From: a virus
Direction: 5' to 3' (one strand)
Virus record (IMG/VR): IMGVR_UViG_3300020202_000125
Coordinates: 1 to 43,223 of that record
DNA length: 43,223 nt
Under the pieces are notes generated by a model that made no database searches, was not told where the DNA came from, and saw only the letters and a list, made by a program, of their open reading frames with translations. Both the position numbers and the translations under genes were made by a program. Shown here one piece after another: positions 1-43,223 of the stretch (positions are counted from its first letter, which is position 1; each line of letters starts with the position of its first letter).

Positions 1-60
1 GGGTCGGGGTCGGGGTCGTGGTCGCGGTCGGGGTCGGGGTCGGGGTCGCGGTCCACATGA
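1..60 (+). repeat. Tandem hexanucleotide repeat, left-end part
   Basis: Perfectly phased NGGTCG units in which only the first base changes (G, T or C). The frame starting at base 1 reads Ser alternating with Gly, Trp or Arg and stops at the TGA at 58-60, which overlaps the ATG at 57 of the next gene. The same array closes the window at 43147-43223. The window therefore starts inside the array, and the true repeat number is unknown. The G-rich strand has many GGGG runs two bases apart and could form G-quadruplexes. Confidence 0.95.
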
Positions 61-4113: not shown

Positions 4114-4431
4114 ATGCGTACGGCAACATTACTCCAGGAATCCGACGAAGTCAAGGCTTTGAAGCTGGCCCTGCAGCTGATGGCCGCCGTCCTGCGGGCA
4201 AATGCGACAAAGCCCGATAAGACGGACGAGAACTGGCCCCGCACACCCGAGCGGGCGATGTCCTTCGCCTGGGCAGCGGTGCTGCCACTGGGCCGGCTCT
4301 CGCAGGACATCAAGGATGCGCTGCAGCTGATCGATCCCCATATGAATGGGACCTACGGCCACGCGGCGGTGCGTGGCATGCTGCGCGACCTCATGCGGGC
4401 TTCGCAGGAGCTGGCTTACCCGGGCGCCTGA
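4114..4431 (+). CDS. Hypothetical helical protein, 105 aa
   Basis: ATG at 4114 follows AAAGGAGG with about 5 bases spacing, the strongest SD nearby, so the upstream in-frame codons are excluded. Begins MRTATLLQESDEVKALKLAL; nearly all helical, no known motif. It converges on the helix-turn-helix gene, overlapping it by 41 bases. The repressor transcript should run to the terminator at 4039, so the whole of this gene lies antisense to it. That arrangement suggests mutual interference. Confidence 0.7.
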   Translation: MRTATLLQESDEVKALKLALQLMAAVLRANATKPDKTDENWPRTPERAMSFAWAAVLPLGRLSQDIKDALQLIDPHMNGTYGHAAVRGMLRDLMRASQELAYPGA

Positions 4432-4765
4432 GCTCGTTGATCTGCCGGTGAAGGTCCCGGACCAGTTCCCGGACCTTCTGCGGCGCATGGGCCAGCTGAG
4501 CCTCGAGGTAGAAGCCCTCGCGCTCGGCCTGTGGAACCAGCAGCGCGTCGGCGATCTCTTCGAGGTCCTCGAGTGGCGGCCGGCTGCGGCCGGTTCGCCA
4601 GCTGATCACGTACTGCGGCGTTCTGCCCAGCGTCTGTGCGACCTGGAGCTGGTTCAGTCCCGAGCGCTCCATGTACACCTCGACCATCGAGCACCACGGG
4701 CTGTAGTACTGCTGCTCTCCCGGCTTGCCGCGCTTTCTCTCCGGGCCCGGATCTCTGCGTCGCAT
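4391..4765 (-). CDS. Helix-turn-helix regulator (Cro/CI-type), 124 aa
   Basis: Start chosen at ATG 4765, which has AAGGAG six bases upstream; the longer frame to 4864 would cross the divergent promoters. Residues about 38-60 (NQLQVAQTLGRTPQYVISWR) fit an XRE-type HTH (helix, turn at LGRTP, recognition helix). The N-terminus is very basic (MRRRDPGPERKRGKPG). The C-terminal half is helical and may dimerise; there is no LexA-like self-cleavage domain. It lies divergent to the recombination operon. The likely targets are the ATCATCACCA motifs in the three early promoters (inference). Confidence 0.75.
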   Translation of the reverse strand: MRRRDPGPERKRGKPGEQQYYSPWCSMVEVYMERSGLNQLQVAQTLGRTPQYVISWRTGRSRPPLEDLEEIADALLVPQAEREGFYLEAQLAHAPQKVRELVRDLHRQINELRRPGKPAPAKPA

Positions 4766-4784
4766 ATCGTTCTCCTTGAGCTTG

Positions 4785-4812
4785 ACGTTACCTGACCGCG
4801 CATCGCATGCAA
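4785..4812 (-). promoter_or_regulatory. Promoter of the HTH regulator
   Basis: Minus strand: TTGCAT (4807-4812), 16-base spacer, TAACGT (4785-4790), predicted start near 4778, then AAGGAG and the ATG at 4765. It sits just beside the divergent promoter at 4827-4855, so one bound regulator could affect both. Confidence 0.5.
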
Positions 4813-4826
4813 CGATAAAGACCCGC

Positions 4827-4855
4827 TTGCGCATCATCACCAGTCGTGCTAATAA
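4827..4855 (+). promoter_or_regulatory. Early promoter 1 with shared operator motif
   Basis: TTGCGC (4827-4832), 17-base spacer, TAATAA (4850-4855) preceded by TGC (extended -10). The motif ATCATCACCA (4833-4842) directly follows the -35. The same arrangement recurs at 40777-40805 and, in a variant, at 37519. Predicted start near 4862, followed by GGAGGG and the GTG start at 4879. Drives the recombination/replication operon. Confidence 0.75.
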
Positions 4856-4878
4856 TAGGGTCACTCGGAGGGCGCCCA

Positions 4879-23238: not shown

Positions 23239-23510
23239 GCTGCGCTCGCCTTCCTGGCTACCCCGAGGAACGCCAGCACGCGGTGATCGTTTTCGGCCTC
23301 GGCGCGCCGAATGGCCTCACGCTCGACGTTCACGCGCACATGCGGCGGCAGATACGCAGCCAGCAGCACCAGATCGCGAGGAGGCATCGCATTGATGTGA
23401 GGCTCGACGCCCCACTTGACCATGCGGTGCGCCACGCATTCCATGCAGTAGCACAGCAGCGCCAGACGCACGGGGTGCAGGTCATCGAATAGGAGCCTGG
23501 CGTCACGCAC
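23235..23510 (-). CDS. Hypothetical protein, 91 aa
   Basis: GTG start overlapping the stop of the upstream gene by 8 bases. MRDARLLFDDLHPVRLALLC then CMECVAHRMVKWGVEPH; helical, with several Cys and His. No family recognised; sits between the DUF115-like gene and the adaptor. Confidence 0.6.
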   Translation of the reverse strand: MRDARLLFDDLHPVRLALLCYCMECVAHRMVKWGVEPHINAMPPRDLVLLAAYLPPHVRVNVEREAIRRAEAENDHRVLAFLGVARKASAA

Positions 23511-24903
23511 CGGCGATCTCCTCGAAGATGCCGGCGCATTCCGTCACCACATTGCGCAGCGCCGTCGACGTCCAGTCGACCACATGATCGGTCGGGAATC
23601 CGAATCGCCGCTCGAACGACATCTGCGCGTACACAGACCGGAACAGGTAGTTGAAGAACGGGGCATTCTCCCCCGGGCAGAGCGTGGCCATGCTCACGTC
23701 CGACGGCTTGTGGGCCGTATCGAGCTTCTTCAGCATGCGCCGCGCGTCCTTGGCCAGGCGCGCCTTGCGGGCCATGAATGGCGCGCGCCGATCCGCGGCA
23801 TCTGGCAGTGTGACCTGACCCAGACTCGACAATTCCACCGGCGACGGCAGCGGTGCGTTCTCGGTGTGGTCGATCTTCGCCCCGGTCGTCAGGTTGGTGT
23901 TGAACACGTTGCCGCGACCGCGCAGCGACATGCCGATCTCGCGGTGCAGCCGTTGCCAGAAGGGAATGGTCGCCACCGGATCGCCGCCATTGCCCGGCAG
24001 CGAAAAGCCGGCGATCGGAATCTCCGGAATGGCGGTGGCCCCCTGCCAGTGCGTCTGGCCGGAAGCATGCGCCAAGTCGTGACCGACGAGATACACCGGA
24101 CCATCGGTCATCCGGCAGGCGCGATAGATCGACATCGTGCCGCTGGACGGGCCGTGCGAATAACGCTTCGTTCCGGGTGATACCCAGTCGTAGACGACGT
24201 CGTGGCCGGGCGAGAAGACGTGTCGCTTAAAGCGACGCACCGCCTCCGGATGCACCAGCGGACAGCCGAGGAAGATCGTCTCGCCGGTGTCTTCCGGCAG
24301 GCAGTCGACGATCTCCGGCACCCGCTCGACCGGCGTGCAGAAGTGCGGCCTGATGCCCTCCTCGAGGAGGCCAGACAACGCCGTGTCTGCGCACACCAGG
24401 ATGCAGGTATCCTGCAGGCTGCGCAGCTTGGCCAGGTGCTCGCGCACGCTGGGACCGCTGCCAATGGCGATGACCGGCGCCTTGCCGAAATGGATGTCGC
24501 CCGTTTCCGGAGCGCGCAGCAGTAGATCGGCGTTCGCCGCCAGGTGCACCGCACCCTGGAGGTTGTCGAGCACATCATTGCCGAACTGGTGAAGCAGGGT
24601 CGGGAAGACGTGCAGTATCTCGCTGCGCAACTCGGGGTGCGTATCCACCTCGAAGAAGTCGGCAGACGCCAGATCGAAAACGCTGGTATAGTCGGGGAAG
24701 GCTTCGTCCACGAAGATGGCTGCGTCGCCCGGGGTGTGCACCGGCCAGCAGGCCGCACCCTTGAGCGGGTCCTGCCCGGCGAAGGTCGCCGCGACCACGC
24801 GCTTGTAGCCGGCCAAATCCTCGAGCGTCAGCGATCCATCGTTGCCCAGGACAACGGCGAGCTCACGCGGTGAGGAGGTGGCGGTACGCGAGGTCTGGGT
24901 CAT
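23503..24903 (-). CDS. DUF115 / MptE-like (MAF-type) protein, 466 aa
   Basis: Residues about 145-195 read APVIAIGSGPSVREHLAKLR followed by DTCILVCADTALSGLLEEGI and RPHFCTPVE, the signature of the DUF115 domain shared by archaeal MptE and by MAF proteins that attach nonulosonic sugars to flagellin. The N-terminal domain is longer than in MptE. SD GGAGG before the ATG. It is flanked by capsid and tail genes, so virion modification is possible; the substrate is unknown. Confidence 0.7.
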   Translation of the reverse strand: MTQTSRTATSSPRELAVVLGNDGSLTLEDLAGYKRVVAATFAGQDPLKGAACWPVHTPGDAAIFVDEAFPDYTSVFDLASADFFEVDTHPELRSEILHVFPTLLHQFGNDVLDNLQGAVHLAANADLLLRAPETGDIHFGKAPVIAIGSGPSVREHLAKLRSLQDTCILVCADTALSGLLEEGIRPHFCTPVERVPEIVDCLPEDTGETIFLGCPLVHPEAVRRFKRHVFSPGHDVVYDWVSPGTKRYSHGPSSGTMSIYRACRMTDGPVYLVGHDLAHASGQTHWQGATAIPEIPIAGFSLPGNGGDPVATIPFWQRLHREIGMSLRGRGNVFNTNLTTGAKIDHTENAPLPSPVELSSLGQVTLPDAADRRAPFMARKARLAKDARRMLKKLDTAHKPSDVSMATLCPGENAPFFNYLFRSVYAQMSFERRFGFPTDHVVDWTSTALRNVVTECAGIFEEIAGA

Positions 24904-25101: not shown

Positions 25102-25611
25102 CTACAGCAGGCCGTCCAGCATCGCCGTGATGGCGAGACTGGCCGCGGTAGCAGCCGCGGTGTTGGTGGCGTAGGCGAAGTACGCCTTCACCGCCGACTT
25201 GGCCTCCGCGCCAGTGATGATCTCCTGCGCCGTACCGGCGACGGAACCCGCATGCAGCGGGGCGCCCTCGGTGATGGTCGTGGCCTGTGCCAGAACTTGG
25301 CACGGACCGGTGACCTGGACGTAGAAGTAGTCATCAGCCGCCAGGTTGATCGCGTTGTAGTCGTTGGGGATGACCCCAGCGACGTCCACGTCACCCAGGG
25401 TGGTCGTCACGTCGACCACGTACGTCGGCACACCGGCGGAGTACGCGGTCACGACGACCTTGTTCTCCGGATCGGTGATGGCGTTATCCGCCTGGCACAG
25501 GCGGTACACTTTGTTGTCCTTCTCGTACAGCTGGCCGAGGAGTCCGGCGCAGAACGAGCCGGTCTCGACGGTGCCGAGCGGGAAGGGAAATTCTTTCTTG
25601 GAGTCGCTCAT
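25102..25611 (-). CDS. Probable capsid decoration protein, 169 aa
   Basis: MSDSKKEFPFPLGTVETGSF, then beta-rich, Ala/Thr/Val-rich sequence without charged clusters (GVPTYVVDVTTTLGDVDVAG). It directly follows the major capsid gene, where head-stabilising proteins are usual. No catalytic motif. SD AAGGGA before the ATG. Confidence 0.6.
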   Translation of the reverse strand: MSDSKKEFPFPLGTVETGSFCAGLLGQLYEKDNKVYRLCQADNAITDPENKVVVTAYSAGVPTYVVDVTTTLGDVDVAGVIPNDYNAINLAADDYFYVQVTGPCQVLAQATTITEGAPLHAGSVAGTAQEIITGAEAKSAVKAYFAYATNTAAATAASLAITAMLDGLL

Positions 25612-35886: not shown

Positions 35887-36144
35887 CTAATGATCAGTCA
35901 GTGCCCTACGCAGGGCGTCCACTGCCGGGTCATGCAGCCCCAGGGCGCTCTCCAGCGGCAGCCCCAGGGTATCCGCCACCTCCTCGATGGGCCATCCATC
36001 GAAGTAGTGCATGCGCAACAGTAAGCGCTGCATCTCTGAGAGATCGCCAATAGCCTCGACCAGGCGCTGGTTGGTCTCGATCACGATCAGGTCGTCTAAA
36101 AGATCGTCGACAGCCACTCGGCCAGGACCTTGAAGACCCACCAC
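35887..36144 (-). CDS. Sigma-70 region 4-like protein, about 85 aa
   Basis: LSEMQRLLLRMHYFDGWPIE followed by EVADTLGLPLESALGL and ALRRALTDH matches the region 4 pattern of sigma factors (YFDG, EEVA, LG, final helix), but no region 2 exists and the recognition helix lacks the usual basic residues. GTG start; several in-frame GTGs leave the exact start open. It may adjust host RNA polymerase at -35 elements, or be an anti-sigma mimic. Confidence 0.6.
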   Translation of the reverse strand: MVGLQGPGRVAVDDLLDDLIVIETNQRLVEAIGDLSEMQRLLLRMHYFDGWPIEEVADTLGLPLESALGLHDPAVDALRRALTDH

Positions 36145-38816: not shown

Positions 38817-39160
38817 ACTACTCGGACGCTGAAACCATCGCCACTATCGCCGTTGACCTCTCCAAGCGCAGGCCGGACCTCCATGCGGCAGGTGTTGCCC
38901 TGGATGCCTGCCACCTCTACCGCATCGGTGGCAAATGCGCTGCCTACGCCACAGCGCTGTGCAACGGCACCATCGACCAGGCCACCTACGACCTCCGCCA
39001 GGAACGGCATCGCAAGGCCGCGGACGAGATCCTCGTCGAATACCGCCTCAAGGCGTGTGTCGGTGGCGATCCTCGCGGATACTGCCTGTGGCTGGAGCCC
39101 ACGGACGGCGTCCCGCTTCGCTCCAACAGCTTCTCAGGCGAGGGCTACGGGATTCGCTAA
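38813..39160 (+). CDS. Hypothetical protein, 115 aa
   Basis: ATGA-coupled. MNYSDAETIATIAVDLSKRR then helical region and CLWLEPTDGVPLRSNSFSGE. No motif recognised. About 65 bases without a gene follow. Confidence 0.65.
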   Translation: MNYSDAETIATIAVDLSKRRPDLHAAGVALDACHLYRIGGKCAAYATALCNGTIDQATYDLRQERHRKAADEILVEYRLKACVGGDPRGYCLWLEPTDGVPLRSNSFSGEGYGIR

Positions 39161-39225
39161 TATGCAATTGATTCTGCCACTCCACGATTTACATCAAACC
39201 GGCCTACGGGCCATAGGAGCTACCC

Positions 39226-39504
39226 ATGACCAAGACCCGCACCGCCCATCGCCTGCCCCTGGAGCTGATGGGCCGCCCTGCTGGGCGGTATTCGATCCAC
39301 TACTACGGCGAGGCCGAGGGCACCGTGCAGCAGTGGGATGGTCGCACGACGGCCGCCCAGCTTGTCGACCAGGACCAGGCGGAGGCACTAAGTGTGGGTG
39401 CGGCTGATCCCGAGACCGGCGAAACCGCAGCCATGGAAGTGCTGATCCTGGAGATCGACGCCGAGGGCGATTGCTGGCTCCTGGACAGTGCGCGCCTCGC
39501 CTGA
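39226..39504 (+). CDS. Hypothetical protein, 92 aa
   Basis: ATG with AGGAG upstream. MTKTRTAHRLPLELMGRPAG; acidic second half (ETAAMEVLILEIDAEGDCWL). Last gene before the terminator hairpin at 39575. Function unknown. Confidence 0.65.
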   Translation: MTKTRTAHRLPLELMGRPAGRYSIHYYGEAEGTVQQWDGRTTAAQLVDQDQAEALSVGAADPETGETAAMEVLILEIDAEGDCWLLDSARLA

Positions 39505-39574
39505 ACCGCCCGCCCCGCGTGACGTCCGGCGGGTAAACCGGACGACCCACTAGCGGCAACTCCGCTCCACGAGC

Positions 39575-39608
39575 AACCCCAGCCTTACCCGCTGGGGTTC
39601 TTCGTTCC
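39575..39608 (+). terminator. Terminator of the 37.5-39.5 kb operon
   Basis: Perfect 9-bp stem AACCCCAGC / GCTGGGGTT (39575-39583, 39591-39599), 7-base loop, followed by CTTCGTTCC, a broken T-rich tail. Likely intrinsic terminator on the plus strand, 70 bases after the last gene. Confidence 0.7.
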
Positions 39609-39868
39609 TAGGGCGCTATGGTGGCCCTGCTGAGCACATACACGCTTCCATCTGGAAGGGTACACTTCTGACCCTCCAACGGAGAGAGACTCAGTCCACA
39701 GCGAGTCACCGGGACGCGGGCGGTAACGATAAACCACCCACTCGCTCCCCACCTGGCACGATACGATTGCATCAATCTCTCTTGCCTGACCCACGGCAGC
39801 GTACGCGCCCTGGCTCGGGCGCGGCGCGCAATACGGCGCTTTCGCTGGAGATCGCGGGGGCCTGTCAT
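39608..39868 (-). CDS. Hypothetical protein, 86 aa
   Basis: ATG overlaps the stop of the upstream minus gene (ATGA), which supports this frame over the longer one to 39956. Very basic N-terminus (RKRRIARRARARARTL), then a beta-like half with LSPLEGQKCTLPDGSVYVLS. No family recognised. Confidence 0.5.
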   Translation of the reverse strand: MTGPRDLQRKRRIARRARARARTLPWVRQERLMQSYRARWGASGWFIVTARVPVTRCGLSLSPLEGQKCTLPDGSVYVLSRATIAP

Positions 39869-40074
39869 TGCTCCACCAAGACCACCGCCAACCGGGCCGC
39901 GAGCTCCGGCGGAACGCTTCCGGCCCCGACAAGAACCCGAAAGGACCCGGGGTCAATCTCCCCCTCCTCGATCATGGAAGCAAGGTTGTCCAACTGCTGC
40001 AGGCTCAGCGATACCCGGGTTTCGACCTTCCAGGTCCGTTCATTCCCATCACCCCGGATCTCGGTCACTTTCAC
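39865..40074 (-). CDS. Small hypothetical protein, 69 aa
   Basis: Start placed at GTG 40074, five bases after AAAGGAG. MKVTEIRGDGNERTWKVETR then SLSLQQLDNLASMIEEGEID. First gene of a two-gene minus operon with a leader of about 90 bases from the promoter at 40170-40197. Unknown function; oriented away from the RNA gene. Confidence 0.6.
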   Translation of the reverse strand: MKVTEIRGDGNERTWKVETRVSLSLQQLDNLASMIEEGEIDPGSFRVLVGAGSVPPELAARLAVVLVEQ

Positions 40075-40169
40075 GATGACTCCTTTATGGTTCAAAACGT
40101 TGCGGAAACGGCGGCTTGCATGGGCACAGCAAGCACACCAACCTCAAAGCCTCGGACTCATGCAGGAAG

Positions 40170-40197
40170 CATGTACCACGATTACCAACAATGTCAA
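40170..40197 (-). promoter_or_regulatory. Divergent promoter, minus side
   Basis: TTGACA (40192-40197), 16-base spacer ending TGG, TACATG (40170-40175). Eight bases separate its -35 from the plus-strand -35 at 40206, making an inverted pair TGTCAA-8-TTGACA. Serves the two minus genes ending at 39608. Confidence 0.6.
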
Positions 40198-40205
40198 CCT
40201 TACGC

Positions 40206-40233
40206 TTGACATTATAACCGAACTTGCTACAAT
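40206..40233 (+). promoter_or_regulatory. Divergent promoter, plus side (structured RNA)
   Basis: TTGACA (40206-40211), 16-base spacer ending TGC, TACAAT (40228-40233): a near-perfect promoter with extended -10. Predicted start near 40240. No SD or gene follows for about 570 bases; what follows is the helix-rich region. Confidence 0.8.
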
Positions 40234-40239
40234 TGACTC

Positions 40240-40756
40240 CGCGTACTGTCGCGCCCACAGGCGACGGGGGGCCCGGAAGCGATACCGGGGTACCAACACA
40301 GGACTACAGGCCCGCATACCCTGGGCCGGCCAACGGTTCTTTGCTGAGAGTGTGGCAAGCCGGGAAACCCATGGCCGCCATCGCTCGCGAGTGATAGCCA
40401 GCCGCTAGGCAGACCACGGTCCCGTGGCTGCCGGTATGCGCCGAGTGCTGGCGAACTGAACTCGGTCCTCAGCAAGGAGCTGTTGCACATACTCTGGATG
40501 GTAGGGTTGGGCCTCTCGACAAGAGTCCTTTCCCGGCTTCCCTCGCCGAGGTCATGCCCTAGCGGCGCGTACCGGCACGAAGCCCAACCTCGCCTACCAG
40601 ACCCCCGGGTTCCATCCGGGTCGCATGAGCCATAGACCCTCGCCGGGAGGGAATGACCAAAGGGGTCGGGTTTCGGAATAGACAAGCCCTCCGGGGGGGC
40701 TCGCTTCGCTCGCCGGGGGGAAGCATTCAAGGATACCTTGAATGCGGTGTCTATAA
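40240..40756 (+). ncRNA. Large structured non-coding RNA candidate, about 515 nt
   Basis: Follows a strong promoter and has no plausible gene. Perfect or near-perfect helices, in order: GTCGC/GCGAC (40248, 40261); CCCGG/CCGGG (40272, 40285); GGCCC/GGGCC (40309, 40323); ATCGCT/AGTGAT (40380-40395, CGCG loop); GGCAG-a-CCACG/CGTGGCTGCC (40408-40432); CCGAGT/ACTCGG (40441, 40460); long-range GGTAGGGTTGGGC with GCCCAAC and CCTACC (40500-40512 with 40582-40598) enclosing CTCT/AGAG and CGGC/GCCG; CCCGG/CCGGG (40604, 40616); CCCTC/GAGGG (40637, 40647); GACC/GGTC (40655, 40664); and ATAGACA/TGTCTAT (40678, 40748) enclosing CCCTCCGG/CCGGGGGG and the 10-bp GCATTCAAGG/CCTTGAATGC. I see no tRNA, tmRNA or RNase P signature. 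Large phage RNAs such as GOLLD or ROOL are comparable in size; identity with them is not shown. Confidence 0.7.
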
Positions 40757-40776
40757 CACACCAACGCATTTTCTAC

Positions 40777-40805
40777 TTGCGTATCATCACCACGTGTGCT
40801 AATAA
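40777..40805 (+). promoter_or_regulatory. Early promoter 3 with shared operator motif
   Basis: TTGCGT (40777-40782), ATCATCACCA (40783-40792), 17-base spacer ending TGC, TAATAA (40800-40805). Nearly identical to the promoter at 4827. GGAG (40815-40818) precedes the ATG at 40825. Starts the operon that runs through the terminal repeat to 3422. Confidence 0.75.
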
Positions 40806-40824
40806 CAGACCCGTGGAGATGACC

Positions 40825-40893
40825 ATGCGCTACGAATTCTTCAACGCGGAGTTGCTGCTCCTGAACATCCTGTTCCGGCGCGCATCGTCGTGA
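40825..40893 (+). CDS. Leader miniprotein, 22 aa
   Basis: ATG six bases after GGAG; MRYEFFNAELLLLNILFRRA then SS and stop. Its TGA lies over the GTG start of the next gene (GTGA). It is short, but ideally placed as the first coupled frame after the promoter. May be a hydrophobic peptide or just a translation starter. Confidence 0.5.
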   Translation: MRYEFFNAELLLLNILFRRASS

Positions 40894-41024
40894 ATCGTTC
40901 GGAGTACTGGCTGCGATCCCTGATCGTTGCCGTGGTGATCATCGCCTTCGTCGTTGCGGTGCGTGTCCTGAAGGACCACGAGAGCCGCAAGGAACCCATC
41001 CGTCTCGAAAGGTTCGCCCCATGA
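40890..41024 (+). CDS. Membrane miniprotein, 44 aa
   Basis: GTG start overlapping the 22-codon frame. MNRSEYWLRSLIVAVVIIAF then VVAVRVL and a charged tail. One transmembrane segment. ATGA overlap with the next gene. Confidence 0.6.
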   Translation: MNRSEYWLRSLIVAVVIIAFVVAVRVLKDHESRKEPIRLERFAP

Positions 41025-41227
41025 ACGCTCCCTACGACCATCGCGGCGCTCCCTACGACCGTCACGGCAAGCTCCAACCCCCTCTCATCAAGGGTTCGGA
41101 CCAGGGACGGGAGGACGTCCACGAGGTTGCCCCCCTGGAGCCGTTCGACTGGTACCTGGCCGGGTTGTTCTCGGGCGTGCTGCTGTTCGTGATCGTGTGG
41201 CTGCTGTGCTTGCTGGTGCTGGGGTGA
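41021..41227 (+). CDS. Membrane protein, 68 aa
   Basis: Soluble polar N-terminal half (MNAPYDHRGAPYDRHGKLQP) and a C-terminal transmembrane segment (LFSGVLLFVIVWLLCLLVLG). GTGA overlap with the next gene. Function unknown. Confidence 0.65.
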   Translation: MNAPYDHRGAPYDRHGKLQPPLIKGSDQGREDVHEVAPLEPFDWYLAGLFSGVLLFVIVWLLCLLVLG

Positions 41228-41598
41228 GCTACTGCCGCTGGTCCTGCGACGACTTCCAGTGCGACCTGTACTGCTTCGAGTCGTGCTATGGCGGATACGA
41301 GACCAACGTTGCCGGCAAGCGCTACGTGTTTGCCGAGCCATTGCCGCCGCCAGTTGAGATGGACCCCAAGAACACGGAAGCATGGCTTACGCGATATAGG
41401 GCAGTTAGAGAGATACTGGATCGCTCTGAGATGCAGCCTATTGGGCTGCCACATGACGGAGCGACCTTCAACGACGACACGCCGCAGGAGTTCCTGGCCA
41501 CGCTACTCATGCTGCGCGAGGCGGGCTATCGCTTCCCGGACTATGTGCTGGGGCGAGTACGCGAAGAGATTGCAGACACCCCAACGGCGAAGCCATGA
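41224..41598 (+). CDS. MSYCR-type phage protein, 124 aa
   Basis: GTG at 41224. Begins MSYCRWSCDDFQCDLYCFES then CYGGYETNVAGKRYVF, the opening of a family common in phages of several hosts (MSYCR-S-DNFQCD-Y), whose function is unknown. Six Cys within the first 30 residues may bind metal. C-terminal half helical. ATGA overlap follows. Confidence 0.75.
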   Translation: MSYCRWSCDDFQCDLYCFESCYGGYETNVAGKRYVFAEPLPPPVEMDPKNTEAWLTRYRAVREILDRSEMQPIGLPHDGATFNDDTPQEFLATLLMLREAGYRFPDYVLGRVREEIADTPTAKP

Positions 41599-41861
41599 CT
41601 GACATCTGGTCCGACCTTGTCTCCCGTGGCTCCGGCGCTGTGGCGCTTGGCAGTGGCCGCATGCTGATCTACGGCAAGTGGACAGACCAATACGGAGGCG
41701 TCCCCGGTCTGGTGTTCGTCTCGAACGACCTGCATGACGAAGAAGCGGAGACGCTGATCCGCGAAGCGGTGCTGGAGATGCAAAGCGACATTCGCCGATC
41801 ATCGAAGGAATCCAGGCGTAAGCGGGCAGACCTGGCTGTCGAAACACCGGCAGAAGAATGA
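41595..41861 (+). CDS. Hypothetical protein, 88 aa
   Basis: ATGA-coupled. MTDIWSDLVSRGSGAVALGS, then a helical, basic C-terminus (IRRSSKESRRKRAD). No family recognised. Confidence 0.65.
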   Translation: MTDIWSDLVSRGSGAVALGSGRMLIYGKWTDQYGGVPGLVFVSNDLHDEEAETLIREAVLEMQSDIRRSSKESRRKRADLAVETPAEE

Positions 41862-41891
41862 CCAACCCCACCCCACCCCGAAAGGCGGCGC

Positions 41892-42083
41892 GTGAAGCCC
41901 TATAACCCCAAAGCCACGTGCCCGAAGTGCGGTCATGACGACATCACCACCAGCTTCGCGAGGGCTGGCTATATGCATGGATTAGGTCGTTGGAACGACG
42001 AGGAATGCCTGGTGCGTTGCTGCACGTGCTGTGGGTTCACCTGGGAAGAGGCGCCGTTGGACGCACAGAAGGAGAACGCGTGA
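41892..42083 (+). CDS. Zinc-ribbon protein, 63 aa
   Basis: GTG start after AAAGG. MKPYNPKATCPKCGHDDITT then CLVRCCTCCGFTWEEAPL: CPKC and CCTCC form a zinc ribbon similar to transcription-factor ribbons (CPxCG with CxxCGxxW). GTGA overlap with the next gene. Confidence 0.7.
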   Translation: MKPYNPKATCPKCGHDDITTSFARAGYMHGLGRWNDEECLVRCCTCCGFTWEEAPLDAQKENA

Positions 42084-43114: not shown

Positions 43115-43223
43115 TGATCGCCGCTGTAATGCGGACAGGCTACGACTGGTCGTGGTCGGGGTCGTGGTCGGGGTCGGGGTCGCGGTCGCGGTCGGGGTCG
43201 TGGTCGGGGTCGGGGTCGGGGTC
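43114..43223 (+). CDS. Repeat-encoded Ser-(Gly/Trp/Arg) protein, partial
   Basis: ATG at 43114 overlaps the preceding TGA. MIAAVMRTGYD is followed by Ser alternating with Trp, Gly or Arg up to the window edge. With one G added at the junction, the frame continues at base 1 and ends Arg-Ser-Thr at the TGA of 58-60, giving roughly 57 residues. Low-complexity and basic; may bind nucleic acid or be merely tolerated. No SD beyond coupling. Confidence 0.55.
   Translation, partial: MIAAVMRTGYDWSWSGSWSGSGSRSRSGSWSGSGSG
43147..43223 (+). repeat. Tandem hexanucleotide repeat, right-end part
   Basis: About 13 in-phase units NGGTCG with N being T, G or C, running to the last base. Together with 1-54 it forms one array of at least 21 units if the ends are adjacent. 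The junction is one base short of phase, so copy number and exact joint are not resolved here. Confidence 0.95.

What the first reader, a model, noticed from the sequence alone, without database searches (positions are those of the whole stretch)
40206..40770. Large structured RNA of unknown class under a strong phage promoter
Seen directly: a TTGACA-N16-TACAAT promoter with extended -10 reads into about 515 nt with no SD-led gene. At least thirteen perfect or near-perfect helices are present, including a 10-bp stem with one bulge (40408-40432), a 13-bp long-range helix split by a 4-base bulge (40500-40512 with 40582-40598), and a 7-bp helix closing a two-hairpin domain (40678-40754). The density of long GC helices far exceeds the neighbouring coding DNA. 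Known giant phage RNAs (GOLLD, ROOL) are similar in size, but I see no signature that identifies it. Inference: an abundant ornate RNA, possibly virion- or host-takeover related.
Basis: partly seen in the sequence, partly recalled or inferred. Interest (0 to 1): 0.92.

Follow-up and report, generated by a model that had tools for sequence, protein, structure and literature searches.

The report
Orphan large structured phage RNA
A phage with no close sequenced relatives appears to make a roughly 530-base RNA that codes for no protein and folds into one compact knotted shape unlike any catalogued RNA; whether it acts alone or as the head of an early gene message is not settled.

Summary
A consensus, extended -10 sigma-70-type promoter (40206-40233) reads into the window's longest protein-free gap. 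The 40240-40770 + strand folds better than all 84 control segments of equal size (z -5.1; controls' minimum -3.6), and far better than its own - strand (z -1.5). Codon statistics and six-frame family searches argue against coding. The fold is well determined (19 helices with mean pair probability at least 0.8). I add a probable 11-bp pseudoknot, 40433-40443 with 40563-40573 (1 of 120 shuffles as good), and a closing helix joining the predicted start (40241) to 40764-40767. No Rfam family fits, GOLLD, ROOL, group I/II introns and RNase P included. All searches for relatives failed, so covariation, the decisive test, could not be done. No intrinsic terminator or second promoter separates the RNA from the rightward genes starting near 40827, so it may be a free RNA or the structured 5' leader of the early transcript. 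I judge a real structured noncoding RNA likely (about 0.75). Its class is undescribed among the families held, but the kind (large structured phage RNA of unknown function) is known. Interest is moderate until a transcript or homologues are shown.

The parts
40206..40233 (+). sigma-70-type promoter TTGACA-N16-TACAAT with extended -10 (TG); predicted start at about 40240/40241
   Evidence: 11/12 consensus
40190..40213 (.). perfect inverted repeat AATGTCAA-N8-TTGACATT overlapping the -35: possible operator, or the -35 boxes of two divergent promoters
   Evidence: only copy in the window, expected 0.03
40241..40773 (+). structured noncoding RNA (about 533 nt); ends are inferred
   Evidence: fold z about -5, noncoding
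40241..40244 (+). 5' arm of the closing helix P1, pairs with 40764-40767
   Evidence: pair probability 0.98 for the chosen ends
40764..40767 (+). 3' arm of P1, followed by AUUUUCU
40246..40267 (+). 5' hairpin, 7 bp, loop GCCCACAG
   Evidence: p 0.99
40270..40290 (+). 5' arm of the central closing helix, pairs with 40603-40622
   Evidence: p 0.93-0.99
40603..40622 (+). 3' arm of the central closing helix
40309..40327 (+). hairpin, 6 bp; its loop region CGCATACC (40313-40320) is complementary to 40433-40440
40331..40485 (+). 17-bp helix (40331-40347/40469-40485) and its branched domain, including the 10-bp bulged hairpin 40408-40432
   Evidence: p 0.98
40493..40601 (+). long helix 40493-40512/40582-40601 and its large, poorly resolved loop
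   Evidence: p 0.96-0.99
40433..40443 (+). 5' arm of the proposed 11-bp pseudoknot (GGTATGCGCCG)
   Evidence: -21.4 kcal/mol, 1 of 120 shuffles as good
40563..40573 (+). 3' arm of the proposed pseudoknot (CGGCGCGTACC)
40678..40754 (+). 3' two-hairpin domain closed by a 7-bp helix; includes the perfect 10-bp hairpin 40723-40745
   Evidence: z -5.0 for 40676-40773
40827..40895 (+). first small ORF (22 aa) downstream; its SD lies within a predicted hairpin; start of the rightward operon

Best explanation
The region is an RNA gene. A strong host-type promoter starts transcription at about 40241 and makes a roughly 530-nt noncoding RNA. It folds as one closed unit: the 5' end pairs with the 3' end, a 5' hairpin and a central multi-branched core held by a 15-bp long-range helix follow, and the apical loops of two core arms are tied together by an 11-bp pseudoknot, with a two-hairpin 3' domain after that. 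It works as a folded RNA, not as a message. Most likely it is made early, at the head of the rightward early transcript, and its function lies in the folded body, either after processing from the leader or as a separate transcript. Shown by sequence: promoter, absence of coding signal, strand-specific excess of folding, no known family. Inferred: the start and end, the pseudoknot, early timing, release from the leader. Not known: the partner or target.
For: 11/12 extended -10 promoter whose expected start is the first base of the closing helix. Lowest fold z of 86 strand-windows tested, + strand -5.1 against - strand -1.5. Pairing fraction with p at least 0.8 is 0.47 against 0.27 (sd 0.12) in shuffles, 4 of 120 as high. 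Crossing helix better than 119 of 120 shuffles, between two loops that nested folding leaves unresolved. Longest gap in the window without a predicted gene, about 660 nt; negative codon log-odds in all six frames; no PHROG match in any frame, stops read through. By contrast, three of the other four promoter matches of at least 10/12 lie 6-9 nt before a start codon and the fourth is inside a gene. Precedent for such orphan RNAs: phage ICP1's most abundant transcript is an ORF-less RNA of about 800 nt of unknown role (PMC7567579).
Against: No homologue was found, so no covariation. No transcript data. Sub-windows of 250-300 nt are not exceptional, and after allowing for the background of this GC-rich genome (mean -0.67, sd 1.34) and for having been picked, the folding excess alone is only moderately significant. 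No intrinsic terminator marks a 3' end. Single-sequence folds of 500 nt are often partly wrong.
Confidence: 0.6

Rival explanations
1. It is a structured 5' leader that acts only in cis on the rightward early operon, for example promoting read-through of terminators (as HK022 put RNA does), protecting the mRNA, or controlling translation of the first genes; there is no free RNA.
For: Same-strand genes follow at 40827 and overlap each other; no terminator or second promoter lies between. The first SD (about 40815) sits in a hairpin. Two consecutive 5' hairpins form locally, which loosely recalls the two stem-loops of put (PMC9378689).
Against: About 530 nt of globally closed, pseudoknotted structure is far more than known cis elements such as the roughly 70-nt put need. 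The local 5' fold is not better than shuffled sequence (z -1.05 for 40241-40296). The ends pair with each other, which fits a self-contained RNA.
Confidence: 0.2
2. It is a DNA-level element (replication origin, packaging site or operator region) whose inverted repeats only look like RNA helices.
For: Lies between divergent gene blocks; a perfect inverted repeat overlaps the promoter.
Against: The folding excess depends on the strand (+ -5.1, - -1.5), which DNA palindromes would not give. No iteron array was found, and cumulative GC skew is low and flat across 40-43 kb without a sharp turn.
Confidence: 0.05
3. It is a decayed protein gene or unconstrained spacer whose folding is a chance of high GC content.
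For: No homologues; a 180-aa antisense ORF runs through it; phage genomes hold junk spacers.
Against: Antisense ORF has non-coding codon use and no family match; all six frames without PHROG matches; a consensus promoter at its edge; folding below all 84 control windows.
Confidence: 0.12
4. It is a divergent member of a known large RNA class (GOLLD, ROOL, group I or II intron, RNase P RNA).
For: Similar size, a phage setting and a probable pseudoknot.
Against: cmscan with permissive filters on 1.1 kb gave no match to any of these among 4227 families; the only hits were chance matches to vertebrate lncRNA segments at E 1.6-4. No tRNA in the window.
Confidence: 0.03

Closest known systems
ICP1 phage ORF-less RNA between gp139 and gp140 (PMC7567579)
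   Same: Large noncoding transcript in an ORF-less gap of a phage without tRNA genes; role unknown
   Different: About 800 nt and shown by RNA-seq; no sequence similarity to ours was found in the phage record collection; ours is unproven as a transcript
ROOL RNA
   Same: Similar size (659 nt for the solved example), phage and prophage setting, elaborate secondary structure with pseudoknots (PMC12286853)
   Different: No Rfam match; no tRNA cluster; oligomerisation untested
GOLLD RNA
   Same: Large phage RNA with long helices and tertiary contacts
   Different: No Rfam match; no tRNA cluster
HK022 put RNA
   Same: Sits just after an early phage promoter and starts with two stem-loops
   Different: About 70 nt against about 530; no Rfam match; local fold here is not significant

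Membership tests
ROOL | Match to the Rfam covariance model | tested here: not met
   no match at gathering score or at E up to 10
ROOL | Homo-octameric RNA cage | not testable with these tools
   needs cryo-EM or native sizing
ROOL | Often near tRNA islands | tested here: not met
   no tRNA in the window (frequent, not strictly defining)
GOLLD | Match to the Rfam covariance model | tested here: not met
Group I / group II introns, RNase P RNA, tmRNA | Match to the family model (Rfam, ARAGORN) | tested here: not met
HK022 put RNA | About 70-nt element of two stem-loops after an early promoter | tested here: inconclusive
   two local hairpins form, but no better than shuffles (z -1.05); no sequence comparison with put was made
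HK022 put RNA | Read-through of terminators by binding RNA polymerase | not testable with these tools
   needs a transcription assay
Large structured phage noncoding RNA (general kind) | Strand-specific folding excess in a noncoding transcript-sized region | tested here: met
Large structured phage noncoding RNA (general kind) | Covariation in homologues | tested here: inconclusive
   no homologue found
Large structured phage noncoding RNA (general kind) | Observed transcript | not testable with these tools
   no RNA-seq available

The most novel reading that the evidence does not exclude
A free-standing, undescribed class of large pseudoknotted phage RNA, made early and acting in trans or as an RNA-only assembly, perhaps with a switch between two pairings of GGUAUGCG (with 40313-40320 or with 40566-40573).
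Probability: 0.25. Interest if true: 0.8.

Novelty: new variant of a known kind. Interest (0 to 1): 0.5.

Why it matters
Large structured phage RNAs such as ROOL and GOLLD have no known function although they can be very abundant. A separate, unrelated example in a different kind of phage would suggest that phages have evolved such RNAs more than once. This one comes with a clear promoter, predicted ends and specific helices, so a single RNA-seq or probing experiment would settle it.

Tried and rejected
Relatives: DNA against phage and plasmid records; terminase, capsid, portal and the antisense frame of the RNA against viral contigs; antisense frame and capsid against genome contigs; terminase, capsid and portal by tblastn in phages. 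All empty. The single-protein scans use exact short peptides and reach only close relatives, and the two searches at E up to 10 returned not even chance hits, so this is weak evidence of absence. An alignment in which I masked non-motif residues to steer the scan gave nothing. Conserved accessory proteins (Sak4-like; the 41197-41598 protein) led to unrelated phages. A Walker A pattern led to very remote terminase relatives. Two of these (G053, G059) have a TTGACA promoter opening a long gap upstream of the terminase, which looked like a positional counterpart, but their gaps share no sequence and fold near chance (z +0.2 to -2.4), and on my reading part of the G053 gap encodes a small protein; I do not count them as homologues. 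Single-sequence covariance models of two domains found nothing credible in about 2 Mb of fetched loci (the second model was run on only half of them). The DNA-element and pseudogene readings were considered and ranked low.

Full report
Setting. The window is a whole IMG/VR virus record of 43,223 bases, GC 0.63, ending in GGGTCG-type repeats. Replication genes (Sak4-like, exonuclease VIII, DnaB-like helicase) lie on the + strand at 4.8-9.1 kb, and head, portal and terminase genes on the - strand at about 13-35 kb. Its terminase, capsid and portal proteins have only remote profile matches and no tblastn match in 50,697 phage records. It is an orphan phage, which limits everything below.

The observation. 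The TTGACA-N16-TACAAT promoter with TG before the -10 is present and is the only such match in 39000-42000. By position its start should fall at about 40240-40241. My simple gene finder leaves 40075-40737 as the longest unfilled gap in the window (it places a weak TTG start at 40738, whereas the ATG at 40827 behind a GGAG is the more plausible start). Codon log-odds are negative in all ORFs within the region, including the 180-aa antisense ORF, and positive in most neighbouring genes. Six frames, with stops read through, match no PHROG family.

Folding. The + strand of 40240-40770 has z -4.8 and -5.1; the - strand has -1.5. Among 84 other strand-windows of 530 nt the lowest is -3.6, mean -0.67, sd 1.34. 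This is the best folder tested and is strand-specific, but by the background of this genome the excess is about 3.3 sd, and windows of 250-300 nt are not exceptional. The 3' domain alone (40676-40773) reaches z -5.0.

Architecture. P1 joins 40241-40244 to 40764-40767. A 7-bp hairpin follows at 40246-40267. The core is closed by 40270-40290/40603-40622 and holds a hairpin (40309-40327), a branched arm on a 17-bp helix (40331-40347/40469-40485), and an arm on 40493-40512/40582-40601. The 3' part holds two small hairpins and a two-hairpin domain (40678-40754). Nineteen helices have mean pair probability of at least 0.8. Two places are poorly resolved by nested folding: the tip of the first arm (40433-40446) and the loop of the second (40514-40577). 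These are complementary to each other over 11 bp (40433-40443 with 40563-40573; up to 15 with overlap). A search for the best crossing helix gave -21.4 kcal/mol against -12.4 (sd 3.7) in shuffles, 1 of 120 as good. I take this as a probable pseudoknot. The same GGUAUGCG can also pair with CGCAUACC at 40313-40320, so two exclusive states are possible. This is unexplained and untested.

Known families. Rfam gives nothing at gathering score and nothing meaningful at E up to 10. GOLLD, ROOL, group I and II introns and RNase P are therefore not met. No tRNA or tmRNA is present. The literature supports the kind: ROOL and GOLLD are large phage RNAs with pseudoknots and kissing loops that form RNA-only cages of unknown function (PMC12286853), and ICP1's most abundant transcript is an ORF-less RNA of about 800 nt outside a tRNA setting (PMC7567579). 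No sequence similarity to any phage record was found.

Free RNA or leader. No terminator-like site and no second promoter lie on the + strand between 40240 and 40827. Rightward genes follow from 40827 and overlap, and the first SD sits in a hairpin. Transcription from 40206 therefore probably enters these genes. On the other hand the RNA closes on itself from the expected first base to 40767, followed by AUUUUCU, and is much larger than known cis elements such as put (about 70 nt; PMC9378689). Three of the other four promoter matches of at least 10/12 lie 6-9 nt from a start codon and the fourth is inside a gene, so a 590-nt leader is unusual for this phage. I favour a folded RNA with its own role at the head of the early transcript, and leave a purely cis leader as the main rival. 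'Early' is inferred from gene order, not shown.

What could not be done. Without homologues there is no covariation test, and single-sequence folding of 500 nt is never fully reliable. Confidence that this is a real structured noncoding RNA on the + strand (own role or leader together) is about 0.75-0.8; confidence in the detailed model is lower.

Noticed in passing
window 39505-39864: A second noncoding gap of 360 nt, between convergent genes, folds better than shuffles on both strands (z -3.6 on + for 39505-39800, -3.2 on -); it holds a terminator-like hairpin at about 39577-39601.
   Followed up: partly
window 33065, 35842, 36988 (- strand starts): Three gene starts lie 6-9 nt after a TTGACA-N16/17-TANNNT promoter match and lack an SD, which would make their mRNAs leaderless.
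   Followed up: partly
window 23503-24903 (-): An MptE-like (PF01973) protein among the virion genes, 3.1e-22; unusual place for this family.
   Followed up: no
window 35887-36144 (-): An 85-aa protein with only sigma-70 region 4 (1.3e-07), upstream of the terminase gene; may be a regulator or a small terminase.
   Followed up: no
window 40190-40213: Perfect 8+8 inverted repeat at the -35, the only copy in the window; an HTH protein (4391-4864) could be its repressor.
   Followed up: partly
window 1-50 and 43140-43223: Both contig ends are tandem GGGTCG-type repeats; the 17-bp end overlap may be an assembly effect of the repeat, so circularity is not proven.
   Followed up: no
window 25251-25500 (+): The most extreme 250-nt folding z (-5.4) in the genome lies inside coding DNA.
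   Followed up: no
L160 2360-2830 (G053) and L159 14933-15570 (G059): Very remote terminase relatives also have a TTGACA promoter opening a long gap upstream of the terminase, without clear excess of folding.
   Followed up: partly
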